64,000 nucleotides of DNA from Bacteroidales bacterium (GTDB taxonomy: Bacteria > Bacteroidota > Bacteroidia > Bacteroidales > F082), in contig JAFUAA010000027.1 of NCBI GenBank assembly GCA_017460915.1, positions 1-64,000 on the forward strand. The letters run 5' to 3'. Shown here piece after piece: positions 38,938 through 43,138 of the stretch. Within the stretch, counting starts at the first letter, position 1, and each line of letters opens with the position of its first letter. The notes beneath the pieces are model-generated. The model saw only the letters and a program-made list of their open reading frames with translations. It was not told the origin of the DNA and searched no databases. Made by a program: the position numbers and the translations under genes.

Positions 38938-39516
38938 TCAAAACGTCTCGGGAACTTTCTCCGCTCCAGCATCGGCCTCGAAATAAGGTCGTTTCTCGAA
39001 GCCGAACAGTTTGGCGATCAAACTGCTTGGGAAGCGGCGGACGCTTTGGTTGTAGGCTTTGGCGGCTTCGTTGAAGCGCCCGCGCTCGGTCAGGATGCGT
39101 CTCTCGCAGCCTGCCAGCTGGGCTTGCAGGGTGAGGTATTTGTCGCTGGCTTTCAGGTCGGGGTAGTTCTCCACGGCCACGAGGAGACGATTCATCGATT
39201 GGCCCAAAGCCTGTTGCGTGGCGTTGAAGTCCTGCAAGTCGCTCTCGGTGTATTTCTCCATGTTGACCGCAGTTGAAGCGGCTTTGGCACGGGCTTCGGT
39301 CACGGCGAGGATGGTCCCTTGCTCGTACTCAGCGTAGTTCTTTACGAGTGCGACGAGGTTGGGCACCAAGTCGGCGCGACGCTGGCAGACGTTCTCCACC
39401 TGGCTCCAAGCCTTGGTGACGGCCTCTTGCTGCCTGACCAAACGGTTGTAAGTGGTCGTCCCCCATATGAGGAGGACGGCCACGATACTCAGGATGGCAA
39501 TCCAAGTTTTCTTCAT
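38938..39516 (-). CDS. LemA family protein
   Basis: 192 residues from the ATG at 39516; a longer frame would overlap pyrI. One N-terminal membrane helix (residues 4-20) is followed by NRLVRQQEAVTKAWSQVENVCQRRADLVPNL-type helices, the LemA hallmark, then a long helical bundle facing the periplasm. The role of LemA proteins is poorly known. The start lies 2 bases from the pyrI stop, so it is probably read with pyrBI. Confidence 0.9.
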   Translation of the reverse strand: MKKTWIAILSIVAVLLIWGTTTYNRLVRQQEAVTKAWSQVENVCQRRADLVPNLVALVKNYAEYEQGTILAVTEARAKAASTAVNMEKYTESDLQDFNATQQALGQSMNRLLVAVENYPDLKASDKYLTLQAQLAGCERRILTERGRFNEAAKAYNQSVRRFPSSLIAKLFGFEKRPYFEADAGAEKVPETF

Positions 39517-39518
39517 GA

Positions 39519-39986
39519 TCAGATGAATTCCAGCTTGTCTTGTGTGGTGTTCTTCTCGCAGTAGTGGCAATGCAACTTGATGTTGCCCTCTGCGTCCTTA
39601 ATGACCGTAAACTTGGTCGGCACGTCGTGCTCCTTGTTGGTCACGCAGTTGGGATTGAAGCATTTCACGATGTTCTCGAGGCGGTCGGGAATGGTCACGG
39701 TTTGCTTCCTGACGACCTCGAAATCCTTGATTTCGATGATGGAAGCCGTCGGGGCCACCAAGGCAATCTTGTTCACGTCCTCGGGCGCGAAGTATTTGTC
39801 GGAGACTTTGATGAAGCCTTTCTTGCCGTATTTCTTGCTCTCGACGTTGGTGCCGAAATACACGGGGTTGCTGACTCTTTCCAAGCCTAGGATCTTGACG
39901 ACTTGGAAGACTTTGTCGGCGGGGATATGGTCGATGACGGTGCCGTTCTCAATGGCGGACACGACTAATTCTTTTCTCTTTTCCAT
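39519..39986 (-). CDS. pyrI: Aspartate carbamoyltransferase regulatory subunit
   Basis: A 155-residue subunit that binds nucleotides and gives ATCase its feedback control. The allosteric domain begins with the opening KELVVSAIENGTVIDHI. The zinc domain has four Cys, in CFNPNC and HCHYCEK. It lies 14 bases after pyrB, the usual pyrBI order. Confidence 0.97.
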   Translation of the reverse strand: MEKRKELVVSAIENGTVIDHIPADKVFQVVKILGLERVSNPVYFGTNVESKKYGKKGFIKVSDKYFAPEDVNKIALVAPTASIIEIKDFEVVRKQTVTIPDRLENIVKCFNPNCVTNKEHDVPTKFTVIKDAEGNIKLHCHYCEKNTTQDKLEFI

Positions 39987-40000
39987 AATGTTTGATTTTA

Positions 40001-40921
40001 TTATTTTAGACCTAAAATTGACGCGATGAGTGCCTGACGGGCATAGACGCCGTTTTGGGCTTGCTGGAAGTAGTAAGCCTTTGGGTTGGCGTCCACATCC
40101 ACGTGGATTTCGTTGACGCGCGGCAGCGGGTGCAATACACGGCAGTTGGGCTTCGAAGCGTCGAGCATGGCATTGCGCAGCACGTAGGAGTTCTTCACCT
40201 TCTCGTATTCCTCAGGGTCGGGGAAGCGCTCGCGTTGGATGCGGGTCATGTAGATGATGTCGGAGTGGGGGATAGCGTCCTCCAGCTCGGTGTACTGATG
40301 GTATTCGAGGTTGCGGTCCTTGATGTGCTGCTTGACGACGCTCGGCAGCTTCAGCTCGACGGGCGAGACGAGGTTGAACTTTGCGTTGAAGTTGCACATG
40401 GCCTCGACGAGGCTGTGGACGGTGCGGCCGTATTTCAGGTCGCCGACGAGCGTGATTTCAAGGTTTTCGAGCGTGCCTTGCGTCTTTCGGATGCTGTAGA
40501 GGTCGAGCATGCACTGCGTGGGGTGCTGGTTGGCACCGTCGCCGGCGTTGATGACAGGCACTTTCGACACTTCGGAGGCGAAGCGGGCCGAGCCTTCGAT
40601 GGGGTTGCGCATGACGATGAGGTCGGCATAGCTGGCCACCATCGTGATGGTGTCGGCCAGCGATTCGCCTTTCTGGATGCTGGTGCCCGAGGTGCTGCTG
40701 AAGCCAATGACGTTGCCGCCCAACAGTTGGATGGCGGTCTCGAAGCTCAGGCGCGTGCGGGTGGAGGGCTCGAAGAACAGCGAGGCAATGATGCGGCCGT
40801 TCAATAGGTTCTGGTGAGGATTCTTCTCGAAATCCTCAGCGATGTCTAAGACATGGCAGATTTCCTCAGGCGTGTAGTCGCTGATGGAAATCAGGCTGCG
40901 GTTTTTCAGTGAAATGGACAT
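40001..40921 (-). CDS. pyrB: Aspartate carbamoyltransferase catalytic subunit
   Basis: A 306-residue enzyme of the first committed pyrimidine step, joining carbamoyl phosphate and aspartate. Key motifs are [12 protein letters not shown] (carbamoyl-phosphate binding), [12 protein letters not shown] and [10 protein letters not shown]. It assembles with PyrI. The 140-base leader before it carries a terminator and an open leader frame, described separately. Confidence 0.98.
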
Positions 40922-41061
40922 ATTCTTAGCGTTTTTAGATTGTTGTTACGACAAAAAAAATGACGGCCAACAATGTGACCGTCAAATAAATAGCGATTGT
41001 TGCTGGAATCCGAGGATTCCGTTCTTGAACTCAATTCCGATGGCGTTACAAAGTTTCTCAT
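40906..41061 (-). CDS. Possible 51-residue pyrBI leader peptide
   Basis: A small frame starts at the ATG at 41061, just after the predicted transcription start. It reads through the whole leader, including the terminator hairpin and its T-run, and stops 16 bases inside pyrB. In Escherichia coli the pyrBI leader peptide has the same layout, and ribosome position relative to polymerase decides termination. The very short 5' end would make it nearly leaderless, which weakens the case. No similarity to known leader peptides is claimed. Confidence 0.35.
40953..40984 (-). terminator. Attenuator-type terminator in pyrBI leader
   Basis: On the minus strand TGACGGTCA pairs with TGGCCGTCA (9 bp, one wobble) around a 6-base loop, followed by eight T. 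It lies about 30 bases before the pyrB ATG and downstream of the promoter, so it can only act as a conditional terminator. Confidence 0.8.
41005..41020 (-). promoter_or_regulatory. Upstream hairpin in pyrBI leader
   Basis: GGAATC and GATTCC pair around a 4-base loop, 20 bases before the terminator stem on the minus strand. Between them, CAACAAT (complement of 40996-41002) can pair with ATTGTTG in the terminator loop and stem (40968-40974), giving a competing fold. Confidence 0.5.
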
Positions 41062-41068
41062 CGGACTG

Positions 41069-41076
41069 CAAAAATA
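41069..41076 (-). promoter_or_regulatory. -7 element of pyrBI promoter
   Basis: Minus-strand TATTTTTG, about 150 bases before pyrB. Confidence 0.65.
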
Positions 41077-41144
41077 GGAAAGTTTTTTGAACAGAATTGC
41101 TTTTTCGGAAAAAAGTTTTTTTCAGGAACGCTTGTTTTTGGAAA

Positions 41145-41237
41145 TCTGGTTTCTACAGCATCAGCAGTTTCGAGCGTTCCTTCAAGGCTGTGACGGGCAA
41201 GACGCCGAGGGCGTATATGAAGGAGATGGAGGGCTGA
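41145..41237 (+). pseudogene. Relic of an AraC-family regulator, C-terminal HTH end
   Basis: A 30-codon stretch ending in TGA reads SGFYSISSFERSFKAVTG and then KTPRAYMKE. This matches the conserved last helix-turn-helix of AraC/XylS regulators (GF-S-SSF-R-FK--TG-TP--Y). Nothing upstream in any frame continues the domain; the sequence before it is T-rich. It is a leftover fragment between pyrB and argS, too short to function. Confidence 0.6.
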
Positions 41238-41272
41238 GGATGCGTTGATTGCATTTTTTGTCGGTTTTTGTC

Positions 41273-41301
41273 TTGTTTTTTAGCCCGATTTACTATTTTT
41301 G
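41273..41301 (+). promoter_or_regulatory. Promoter of argS
   Basis: TTG at 41273-41275, an 18-base spacer and TATTTTTG at 41294-41301, 26 bases before the ATG. Confidence 0.7.
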
Positions 41302-41326
41302 CGCAAAATAAACAAGAGCAAAAACT

Positions 41327-43138
41327 ATGTTAGAACAAGTACTAAGACAGTTGTTTATCAAGTCGTTCATGACTTTATATGGTCAGGAGCCTCCTGTCCA
41401 GCAAGTGAATTTCCAGAAGACACGCCCTGAGTTTGAGGGCGACATGACCATCGTGGTGTTTCCCTTCGTGAAATTGGCGGGCCGCAATCCCGAGCAGTTG
41501 GCCAACGAAATGGGTGCCGAGATGATCAAGGAATCGGACATGATTGCCAAGTTCACCGTTGTAAAAGGTTTTCTTAACTTGTTGATTTCCGACAGGTTCT
41601 GGATGGATTTCTTCAAGGCGAACCACGAAAACCGCGCGTTTGGCCGCAAGCCTGTCGAGGGCAAGGCCGTGGTCGTCGAGTATTCGTCGCCCAACACGAA
41701 CAAACCTTTGCATTTGGGCCATATCCGCAACAACCTCCTCGGCTGGAGCGTTTCGGAGATTATGAAGGCCAATGGCAAGAACGTGGTGCGCGTTAATTTG
41801 GTGAACGACAGGGGTATCCATATCTGCAAGAGCATGTTGGCCTGGCAGAAATGGGGCAATGGATGCACGCCCGAGTCGACGGGCAAGAAAGGCGACCATC
41901 TCATTGGCGACTTCTATGTGCTGTTCGACAAGAAATACAAAGAGGAAGTAAAATCCCTGTTGCCAGAGAATTACGCCGCTCTGAGCGAGAAAGAACAAGA
42001 AGAAGCCAAGGCCAAGGCCGAAGCCGATGCACCGCTGATGCAAGAAGCCCGCGAGATGCTACGCAAATGGGAAGCCAACGACCCCGAAGTGCGTCACCTT
42101 TGGGAGACGATGAACCAATGGGTGTATGACGGCTTCGATGTGACTTACAATCGTTTAGGTGTGGCCTTCGAGAAGATTTACTACGAATCACATACCTATC
42201 TCTTGGGCAAGGAATTGGTGCAGGAAGGCCTCGAAAAAGGCGTGCTTTACCGCCGCGATGACAACTCTGTGTGGTGTGACCTCCGCGATGAGGGCTTGGA
42301 TGAAAAGCTCCTTTTGCGCCGTGACGGAACTTCAGTCTATATGACCCAAGACCTCGGTACGGCTCAACTGCGCGTGAAGGAATATGACCCAGAGAAATTG
42401 ATTTATGTCGTTGGTAATGAGCAGATTTACCACTTCGATGTGCTAAAGCGCGTGTTGGTGCGCCTCGGTCGCGAATGGGGCAATGATATCGAGCACCTTT
42501 CCTACGGCATGGTCGAACTGCCTAACGGCAAGATGAAGTCTCGCGAGGGCACCGTGGTCGATGCTGACGACCTCATGGACGAGATGGTGGCCACGGCAAA
42601 AGGCGTCTCCGAAGAACTCGGAAAGGCTAAAGACCTTTCGCCGGAAGAAGCTGACAAACTGTATCATACCATCGGTCTGGGCGCCTTGAAGTACTTTATA
42701 TTAAAGGTGGACCCGAAGAAGACGATGCTTTTCAATCCAGAGGAGTCCATCGACTTCAACGGCAACACGGGACCGTTTGTGCAATACACCCACGCCCGTA
42801 TCTGCTCCGTTTTGCGCAAGGCGGAAGAACAAGGCATCAAGCTGGAGAGTGAAATGAAAATCAGTGACTTGCAGCCGAAGGAGAAGGAAATCATTGTGAT
42901 GATGTACGGCTGGCCGATGGTCTTGAACCAAGCCGCTGAGAACCGCAGTCCCGCTATGGTGGCCAATTTCATCTTCGACCTCGCCAAGGAGTTCAACCAG
43001 TTCTACCAGGAGTGCAACATCTTGAAAGAGGCTGATGCCGACCGCCGTATGTTCCGCTTGCAGGTGTGCGACATGGTGGCGGCCTTGCTGCGCAATGCGT
43101 CTGAATTGCTGGGCATTGGAATGCCGGAAAGAATGTGA
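41327..43138 (+). CDS. argS: Arginyl-tRNA synthetase
   Basis: A 603-residue class I synthetase. An N-terminal Add1-like region recognises the tRNA D loop. The HIGH motif reads HLGHIRN in the segment SSPNTNKPLHLGHIRNN. The KMSKS-equivalent is KMKSREG, and the C-terminal anticodon-binding helices end around GIGMPERM. Length fits bacterial ArgRS with small insertions, one being a Lys/Glu-rich segment near residues 205-230. Confidence 0.98.
   Translation: MLEQVLRQLFIKSFMTLYGQEPPVQQVNFQKTRPEFEGDMTIVVFPFVKLAGRNPEQLANEMGAEMIKESDMIAKFTVVKGFLNLLISDRFWMDFFKANHENRAFGRKPVEGKAVVVEYSSPNTNKPLHLGHIRNNLLGWSVSEIMKANGKNVVRVNLVNDRGIHICKSMLAWQKWGNGCTPESTGKKGDHLIGDFYVLFDKKYKEEVKSLLPENYAALSEKEQEEAKAKAEADAPLMQEAREMLRKWEANDPEVRHLWETMNQWVYDGFDVTYNRLGVAFEKIYYESHTYLLGKELVQEGLEKGVLYRRDDNSVWCDLRDEGLDEKLLLRRDGTSVYMTQDLGTAQLRVKEYDPEKLIYVVGNEQIYHFDVLKRVLVRLGREWGNDIEHLSYGMVELPNGKMKSREGTVVDADDLMDEMVATAKGVSEELGKAKDLSPEEADKLYHTIGLGALKYFILKVDPKKTMLFNPEESIDFNGNTGPFVQYTHARICSVLRKAEEQGIKLESEMKISDLQPKEKEIIVMMYGWPMVLNQAAENRSPAMVANFIFDLAKEFNQFYQECNILKEADADRRMFRLQVCDMVAALLRNASELLGIGMPERM

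What the first reader, a model, noticed from the sequence alone, without database searches (positions are those of the whole stretch)
40906..41076. pyrBI leader with attenuator, competing fold and open leader frame
Seen: a -7 element, then a 140-base leader with a strong terminator (9-bp stem, eight T) just before pyrB. An upstream hairpin is also present, as is a 7-base pairing (CAACAAT with ATTGTTG) that would disrupt the terminator. A 51-codon frame starts near the transcription start, crosses the terminator and overlaps pyrB. Known: the enterobacterial pyrBI operon is controlled by UTP-sensitive attenuation with this layout. Inference: an analogous pyrimidine-sensing leader in Bacteroidota, with a U-rich stretch (CGCTATTTATTTG) as possible pause site.
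Basis: partly seen in the sequence, partly recalled or inferred. Interest (0 to 1): 0.7.

Follow-up and report, generated by a model that had tools for sequence, protein, structure and literature searches.

The report
Likely ribosome-coupled off-switch before pyrB
The start of this bacterium's pyrimidine-synthesis message carries a built-in stop signal that a trailing ribosome probably overrides when pyrimidines run short, the same logic as a classic E. coli switch but in a distant phylum and with unusual features at its very first bases.

Summary
The core observation holds; one part does not. A pyrBI transcript of a Bacteroidales genome starts at a Bacteroidota -7 box, runs through a 51-codon frame and meets a terminator (9 pairs, T8) before pyrB. 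Comparison lifts it above chance: box, ATG and terminator occur in 63 of 71 distinct upstream regions of the genus and 41 of 43 from other genera of the family, and the frame reaches the terminator in 63 of 63 and 41 of 41. Over 60 divergent clusters the frame is open in 58, the other frames in 5 and 20, shuffles in about 18. The peptide shows little conservation, no antiterminator is evident, PyrR was not detected, and a U-rich stretch precedes the stem: the anatomy of E. coli pyrBI attenuation. New: the frame starts nearly at the RNA's 5' end, and the first three bases (pyrimidine, pyrimidine, G) co-vary with a downstream complement, forming a hairpin at its start codon. UTP and ribosome dependence and the start site are inferred.

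The parts
41069..41076 (-). -7 promoter box TATTTTTG (Bacteroidota sigma-A type TAnnTTTG)
   Evidence: box type and its -12..-5 position from passages of PMC9723704
41062..41064 (-). inferred first transcribed bases CCG (pyrimidine-pyrimidine-G); start site inferred from promoter spacing, not mapped
41037..41064 (-). 5'-terminal hairpin H1 (CCGATG / CATCGG) that contains the leader start codon
40906..41061 (-). 51-codon leader frame, ATG 7 nt after the -7 box, crosses the terminator and overlaps pyrB by 16 nt; openness conserved, peptide sequence hardly
41005..41020 (-). hairpin H2 GGAATC-CTCG-GATTCC, possible pause hairpin; mostly a genus-level feature
40983..40995 (-). U-rich stretch CGCTATTTATTTG at the foot of the terminator, possible UTP-sensitive pause region
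40961..40984 (-). intrinsic terminator stem-loop TGACGGTCA-CATTGT-TGGCCGTCA (attenuator)
40953..40960 (-). T8 tract of the terminator; expected 3' end of the short leader RNA
40001..40921 (-). pyrB, aspartate carbamoyltransferase catalytic subunit
   Evidence: TIGR00670 over cut-off
39519..39986 (-). pyrI, aspartate carbamoyltransferase regulatory subunit
   Evidence: TIGR00240 over cut-off

Best explanation
This is a transcription attenuator of the pyrBI operon that works by coupling a translating ribosome to RNA polymerase. Transcription starts a few bases after the -7 box and a ribosome begins on the leader ATG almost at the 5' end. When UTP is plentiful, RNA polymerase runs through the U-rich stretch ahead of the ribosome, the terminator folds and transcription stops at the T8 tract. 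When UTP is scarce, polymerase hesitates in the U-rich stretch, the ribosome closes up and covers the 5' arm of the terminator, and transcription continues into pyrBI. Nearly any open frame will do. Shown here: anatomy, frame openness, terminator conservation, U-rich stretch, no evident antiterminator, no PyrR detected. Inferred: translation of the frame, pausing, UTP as the signal, termination in vivo.
For: Frame open to the terminator in 58 of 60 clusters versus 5 and 20 of 60 in the other frames and 18.2 of 60 expected from shuffles; 63 of 63 and 41 of 41 leaders with the element in the genus and in other genera of the family. The terminator arms are read in different phases in different relatives, yet the frame stays open. 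Differences fall 60/70/72 on codon positions. T content 0.43 in the 28 nt before the stem versus 0.27 upstream, higher in 52 of 58 clusters. Terminator-upstream complementarity equals shuffles. No PyrR above cut-off and no PyrR RNA in the window's genome. In 451 kb of this genome only 3 of 353 called genes have a box followed by a terminator upstream, pyrB among them. Two other coding genes of the genome start at an ATG 7 nt after a -7 box, so near-leaderless starts appear to be used. E. coli pyrL measured the same way: 88 nt from ATG to stem, frame ends 47 nt past the stem start, T content 0.43, T8GC tail. E. coli mechanism as in passages of PMC10135430 and PMC5021804.
Against: No expression, ribosome-profiling or start-site data. 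Clusters are related by descent, so counts are not independent events. Seven of 71 genus loci lack the element (L019, L025, L101, L103 without leader; L032, L034 without terminator; L043 without the leader promoter; an eighth, L031, is a truncated match), so it is dispensable. Five clusters count as open only because I allowed a stop up to 12 nt before the stem (-11, -10, -6, -5, -2). Two clusters fail (L077, L250), though L077 has a second ATG whose frame does reach the stem. In 76 of 88 loci from other families, and in 14 of 21 further named loci (L061-L082), the element was not found. A slight synonymous excess in the leader frame leaves some peptide constraint possible. The U-rich stretch of the window itself is short.
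Confidence: 0.76

Rival explanations
1. Start-site switching at the YYG triplet is the main sensor: with high CTP/UTP transcripts begin at the pyrimidines, H1 folds over the leader ATG, the leader is not translated and the terminator forms; with low pyrimidines transcripts begin at G or A, H1 is lost, the leader is translated and the terminator is bypassed. The U-rich pause is secondary or absent.
For: YYG at bases 5-7 after the box in 47 of 58 clusters versus 9 of 129 other promoters of this genome. Triplet and complement co-vary: CCG with CGG 73 of 77, CTG with CAG 8 of 9, TCG with CGA 5 of 6; own complement in 95 of 109 versus 64.6 for permuted triplets. Dropping the three bases costs on average 4.30 (genus, 63 leaders) and 4.25 kcal/mol (other genera, 41), versus 0.37 in 129 control promoters; 3.5 in the window. 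The leader ATG sits in the 5' arm, loop or 3' arm of H1 in different genera.
Against: Start sites unmapped. The TTG class pairs weakly (9 of 17). The cost is only 0.66 in 11 leaders of other families. H1 pairs its 5' bases with probability over 0.5 in 37 of 58 clusters, not all, and its mean folding z is only -0.69. YYG is kept in L019, L025, L101, L103, which have lost the leader. H1 could simply protect the 5' end.
Confidence: 0.3
2. A regulatory protein or NusG paralogue, not a ribosome, controls read-through of the terminator, and the open frame is incidental.
For: UpxY proteins of Bacteroides fragilis prevent premature termination in 5' leaders of capsule operons (passage of PMC7819879); the terminator core GACGG/CCGTC is unchanged in 39 of 45 family clusters, which could mean recognition.
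Against: Frame openness in 58 of 60 clusters versus 5 and 20 for the other frames has no explanation under this reading; PyrR not detected. Other regulators were not searched for.
Confidence: 0.08
3. Amino-acid-type attenuation (trp/his style) or a functional small peptide.
For: A translated leader frame before a terminator; such leaders are reported for amino-acid operons in Flavobacterium (passage of PMC9723704). Slight synonymous excess in the leader frame, 35 of 105 versus 24 of 117 and 30 of 108.
Against: Differences even over codon positions, no antiterminator pairing beyond shuffles, no shared run of one amino acid seen by eye in the 60 cluster translations.
Confidence: 0.03
4. The terminator is a constant brake with no regulation, or ends an upstream transcript.
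For: In the 24 box-less loci of other families that I read, the terminator before pyrB generally sits right behind another gene (by eye).
Against: Here the upstream gene argS is divergent, a promoter box precedes the terminator, and a constant brake needs no open frame.
Confidence: 0.08

Closest known systems
E. coli / enterobacterial pyrBI attenuation with leader peptide pyrL
   Same: Same operon, leader frame entering or crossing an intrinsic terminator, U-rich stretch before it with the same T content (0.43), similar ATG-to-stem distance, T8 tail.
   Different: Unrelated terminator stem; ATG almost at the inferred 5' end in this genus, whereas a GGGAGG ribosome site precedes the pyrL ATG in the E. 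coli sequence; start codon lies in a 5'-terminal hairpin; Bacteroidota promoter. UTP and ribosome dependence untested here.
E. coli / Salmonella pyrC and pyrD nucleotide-sensitive start-site selection
   Same: Pyrimidines then G at the start site, and a hairpin that depends on the first bases and covers a translation start (E. coli details recalled; only titles seen, in the reference list of PMC5730371).
   Different: Hairpin covers the start codon of a leader frame, not the ribosome site of the enzyme gene, and is combined with a terminator.
PyrR-dependent attenuation (Bacillus type)
   Same: Terminator before pyrimidine genes (recalled).
   Different: No PyrR above cut-off and no PyrR-binding RNA in this genome, no antiterminator pairing beyond shuffles.
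Leader-peptide attenuators of amino-acid operons in Flavobacterium psychrophilum
   Same: Leader peptide and terminator-type control in Bacteroidota (passage of PMC9723704).
   Different: Different signal; here the peptide sequence is largely free to vary.

Membership tests
pyrBI-type UTP-sensitive attenuation | pyrB-pyrI operon with its own promoter and leader | tested here: met
   promoter by sequence only
pyrBI-type UTP-sensitive attenuation | intrinsic terminator between promoter and pyrB | tested here: met
   63 of 71 genus loci and 41 of 43 other loci of the family
pyrBI-type UTP-sensitive attenuation | leader frame open into or through the terminator | tested here: met
   58 of 60 clusters
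pyrBI-type UTP-sensitive attenuation | U-rich region before the terminator | tested here: met
   52 of 58 clusters
pyrBI-type UTP-sensitive attenuation | no alternative antiterminator structure | tested here: met
   mean longest complement 4.7 versus 4.8 in shuffles; 6 of 58 have 7 or more
pyrBI-type UTP-sensitive attenuation | no dedicated regulatory protein | tested here: inconclusive
   only PyrR was tested
pyrBI-type UTP-sensitive attenuation | read-through rises when UTP falls | not testable with these tools
   no expression data
pyrBI-type UTP-sensitive attenuation | read-through needs translation of the leader | not testable with these tools
   no experiment; indirect support from frame openness
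pyrC-type start-site switching | pyrimidines then purine at the start site | tested here: met
   47 of 58 clusters versus 9 of 129 control promoters; start site itself inferred
pyrC-type start-site switching | hairpin that depends on the first bases and covers a translation start | tested here: met
   by prediction and covariation; weak in the TTG class and in other families
pyrC-type start-site switching | start site moves with nucleotide pools | not testable with these tools
   no 5'-end data
PyrR-dependent attenuation | PyrR protein in the genome | tested here: not met
   two matches far under the cut-off (22.9 and 19.9 versus 138 bits); genome 95.7% complete
PyrR-dependent attenuation | PyrR-binding RNA element | tested here: not met
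   no match in this genome
amino-acid (trp/his) attenuation | competing antiterminator hairpin | tested here: not met
amino-acid (trp/his) attenuation | conserved regulatory codons | tested here: inconclusive
   none seen by eye translations; even codon positions but slight synonymous excess
any Rfam 15 family | match at gathering score | tested here: not met
   three matches up to E 5 in 39000-42000, all + strand and below gathering score

The most novel reading that the evidence does not exclude
A two-input pyrimidine switch in Bacteroidales: the polymerase reads CTP/UTP once when it chooses the first base (YYG), which decides whether a 5'-terminal hairpin hides the start codon of a near-leaderless leader frame, and reads UTP again at the U-rich stretch before the terminator. 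Start-site choice would set leader translation, and leader translation would set attenuation; and transcription and translation would have to be physically coupled in this phylum.
Probability: 0.27. Interest if true: 0.82.

Novelty: new variant of a known kind. Interest (0 to 1): 0.63.

Why it matters
Ribosome-coupled attenuation of pyrBI is a textbook mechanism of enterobacteria. A family-wide element with the same quantitative anatomy in Bacteroidales points to independent evolution of the same logic and gives a natural reporter for an open question: whether ribosomes trail RNA polymerase closely enough in Bacteroidota to control termination. The co-varying first three bases suggest a further layer, start-site choice feeding into attenuation, that simple 5'-end mapping can test. 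My nine paper searches (listings only, capped at 20 rows) showed no report of it; the library holds only open-licence papers, and the one review I tried by its id was not held, so earlier mention cannot be excluded.

Tried and rejected
Competing fold CAACAAT/ATTGTTG: rejected, 2 of 115 leaders. Strongly conserved leader peptide: not supported. PyrR attenuation: rejected for this genome. Known Rfam RNA: none. Conservation across the order: 99 of 156 upstream regions (genus and family loci included) carried a terminator-like site, but in the 24 box-less ones that I read the terminator generally sits right behind another gene (by eye), so such loci were not counted as leaders; 12 of 88 distinct loci from other families have box, ATG and terminator, 11 of 12 open, and most of these show neither a paired YYG start nor the GACGG stem, so kinship is not shown. 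Start motif as a signature of all pyrimidine genes: not supported but not excluded. Of 13 pyrE loci, 10 showed a -7 box near the gene; none has CCG at the start, one (L299) has CTG. Of 15 pyrD rows, 10 showed no box, one sub-cut-off row (L331) one at -11, and four a box 140-179 nt upstream; two of these (L327, L329) do have CCG at that place, perhaps inside the preceding gene, not followed up. carA gave no match above cut-off in 14 genomes. H2 as a family-wide pause hairpin: 11 of 19 genus clusters lie in the lowest tenth of shuffles versus 8 of 33 others. H1 by folding energy alone is weak (mean z -0.69, 22 of 58 below -1); covariation is what supports it, and even there two of the five measures (pairs changed on both sides, further pair types) did not exceed shuffles.

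Rows dropped before counts: minus-strand matches were skipped and recovered; identical last-160-nt copies; 226 distinct regions gave 158 with a terminator, 118 with a box, 115 with the box 45-135 nt before the stem, 60 clusters at 80% identity. One search drops upstream regions under 190 nt and identical last-150-nt copies, allows longer loops and one variant box, because the stricter finder had missed seven family loci with visible leaders; it recovered five, while L179 and L197 show an open frame by eye but no terminator that the finder accepts. L031 is a truncated match and is counted among the 71. Named loci L003-L060 and L063 were assigned to the genus by me from PyrB identity (84% or more), not by the tool. 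Representatives include three near-identical loci (L186, L190, L195).

Full report
What is there. On the minus strand, pyrB (40921-40001) and pyrI (39986-39519) lie in tandem. Upstream, argS is divergent (41327-43138, +), so the leader belongs to pyrB. It holds a TAnnTTTG box (41076-41069), an ATG seven bases after it (41061) that opens a 51-codon frame ending 16 nt inside pyrB, a small hairpin (41020-41005), a U-rich stretch (40995-40983) and an intrinsic terminator (stem 40984-40961, T8 40960-40953). In Flavobacterium psychrophilum the box lies at -12 to -5 (passage of PMC9723704); applied here this puts the first base at 41064, so that the RNA begins CCG-AUG. This start site is inferred. 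The nearest named loci are Bacteroidales from ruminant guts, one with 100% PyrB identity in its best segment (L003).

Is it more than chance. One terminator-like site in such a region is not unusual (5 found, 4.7 expected), and the fold is only moderately better than shuffles (z -1.99). Comparison decides. In the window's genus (named loci placed there by PyrB identity of 84% or more) 63 of 71 distinct regions have box, ATG and terminator, and in 63 of 63 the first ATG opens a frame that reaches the terminator. In other genera of the family, 44 loci from 43 of the 74 such genomes, the numbers are 41 of 43 usable regions and 41 of 41, spanning 12 of 13 fetched genera. Among 21 further named loci (L061-L082) 7 have the element and 6 are open; some of these repeat family loci. 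In other families of the order 12 of 88 have it and 11 are open. 'Reaches' means that the stop lies no more than 12 nt before the stem.

Frame test. After clustering 115 leaders at 80% identity into 60 clusters, the first-ATG frame is open in 58, the +1 frame in 5, the +2 frame in 20; dinucleotide shuffles of the same stretch give 18.2. Among 66 leaders with the ATG at +7, frame 0 has 3 stops before the stem, the other frames 160 and 74. The terminator arms fall in different reading phases in different relatives (for example ..DGHIVGRLFF....LAVTLLAVFFL....ADGQLKPSFF..), so openness is kept while the peptide changes. In 22 independent close pairs the differences fall 60/70/72 on codon positions 1/2/3; single-change codons are synonymous in 35 of 105 cases in the leader frame and in 24 of 117 and 30 of 108 in the others, a slight excess. 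I conclude that ribosome passage is selected far more than a peptide. Clusters share ancestry, so the counts overstate independent evidence.

The stretch before the terminator. T makes up 0.43 of the 28 nt before the stem and 0.27 of the rest, higher in 52 of 58 clusters (Wilcoxon p 4e-10); G is 0.10 or less over the last 20 nt. Box-to-stem distance is tight (median 94.5 nt, tenth to ninetieth percentile 73-105). Among the 58 open clusters, stops fall either near or just inside the terminator (-11 to +20) or well beyond (+43 to +133). The hairpin before the U-rich stretch is better than shuffles in the genus (mean z -1.77, 11 of 19 clusters in the lowest tenth) but hardly elsewhere (mean z -0.60, 8 of 33).

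Controls in the same genome. In 451 kb with 353 called genes I found 130 TAnnTTTG boxes upstream of genes; only 3 genes have such a box followed by a terminator, pyrB among them; of the other two, one has no ATG in the first 45 nt and one has an ATG 40 nt after the box whose frame also reaches its terminator. The pyrB terminator core occurs once in this sample.

Comparison with E. coli, by the same measures: pyrL ATG to stem 88 nt, frame ends 47 nt after the stem start, T content 0.43 in the same 28 nt, tail T8GC. Here T8G ends 36 of 58 cluster terminators. Passages of two papers state that low UTP makes polymerase pause in pyrL, and that coupling across the leader peptide prevents the terminator (PMC10135430; PMC5021804). 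The stems are unrelated in sequence, so I read this as convergent. PyrR is not detected: no protein above cut-off and no PyrR RNA (the genome is 95.7% complete).

What is new. First, in this genus the leader ATG is 7 nt after the box, which leaves an inferred 3-nt 5' end. That such starts are used is suggested by two other coding genes of the same genome with the same spacing and CCG before the ATG, one resembling BamD and one secreted protein (names by eye). Published surveys call leaderless mRNAs uncommon here (5.5% in F. psychrophilum; about 3.7% of 5' UTRs under 10 nt in B. thetaiotaomicron; passages). Second, the bases at the inferred start are pyrimidine-pyrimidine-G in 47 of 58 clusters and in 9 of 129 other promoters of this genome. 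Third, these bases co-vary with a complement at bases 20-42: CCG leaders have CGG in 73 of 77, CTG leaders CAG in 8 of 9, TCG leaders CGA in 5 of 6, TTG leaders CAA in only 9 of 17. Over 109 such leaders 95 hold their own complement; permuting the triplets gives 64.6 on average and at most 78 in 5000 trials; for 54 representatives 42 versus 24.9, at most 36. In control promoters 49 of 129 hold a complement by chance, against 97 of all 121 leaders. In the alignment of 37 genus leaders the two helices together give 15 cells changed on both sides versus 8.3 in shuffles (1 of 500 as high) and a covariation score reached by 1 of 500, but the number of pairs changed on both sides (4 versus 4.0) and of further pair types (14 versus 13.6) does not stand out. 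Dropping the three bases costs 4.30 kcal/mol in the genus, 4.25 in other genera, 0.66 in 11 leaders of other families and 0.37 in 129 control promoters (means; 3.5 in the window). Where H1 is predicted it contains the leader start codon, in the 5' arm in this genus, in the loop or the 3' arm in others; in L068, L174 and L187 the ATG follows it within 2 nt; several clusters (for example L029, L057, L172, L183) show no such hairpin.

Reading. The best-supported reading is ribosome-coupled, UTP-sensitive attenuation of pyrBI. The bolder reading adds start-site choice: pyrimidine-rich cells start at YY, H1 folds, the leader is not translated, and transcription stops; pyrimidine-poor cells start at G or A, H1 is lost, the leader is translated and pyrBI is made. 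Against it, start sites are unmapped, the TTG class pairs weakly, and the triplet persists in four loci that lost the leader (L019, L025, L101, L103). Those loci, and L032 and L034, which keep H1 but lost the terminator, are natural deletion experiments.

Limits. In other families 76 of 88 loci lack the element; in the 24 box-less ones that I read pyrB generally stands behind another gene. pyrE promoters of the genus lack CCG (one of ten has CTG), while two pyrD loci have a distant box with CCG that I did not follow, so pyrB specificity of the start motif is likely but not settled. Unexplained: the terminator core GACGG/CCGTC is unchanged in 39 of 45 family clusters while the rest of the leader diverges. 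My nine paper searches listed no report of this element, and the review I tried was not held.

Noticed in passing
L019, L025, L101, L103, L032, L034 (upstream of pyrB): Natural losses: four loci lack the whole leader but keep the YCCG start; two keep the 5' hairpin and a short frame running into pyrB but lack the terminator.
   Followed up: partly
40984-40961 and relatives: Terminator core GACGG/CCGTC is unchanged in 39 of 45 family clusters although a terminator needs only pairing; it occurs once in 451 kb of this genome.
   Followed up: partly
L258 (G000:C22:237417-237434) and L261 (G000:C43:25284-25301): Two coding genes start at an ATG 7 nt after a -7 box with CCG before it, apparently near-leaderless mRNAs.
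   Followed up: no
14 genomes of the genus: No carbamoyl-phosphate synthase small subunit (TIGR01368) passed its cut-off in 14 of 14 genomes; only weak matches, perhaps another amidotransferase. pyrE (TIGR00336) had no match in the window's own genome but was over cut-off in the other 13.
   Followed up: no
L327, L329 (pyrD loci): A -7 box 179 nt upstream of pyrD is followed by GCCCGA, i.e. the same CCG position as at pyrB; perhaps chance inside the preceding gene.
   Followed up: no
24 box-less loci among L131-L157 and L201-L246 (other families): In most of them, by eye, one and the same kind of gene with its own terminator lies directly before pyrB; not identified.
   Followed up: no
window 38938-39570 (-): Protein matches the MamQ model below its cut-off (103 versus 250 bits); probably a LemA-like protein (recalled name).
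   Followed up: no
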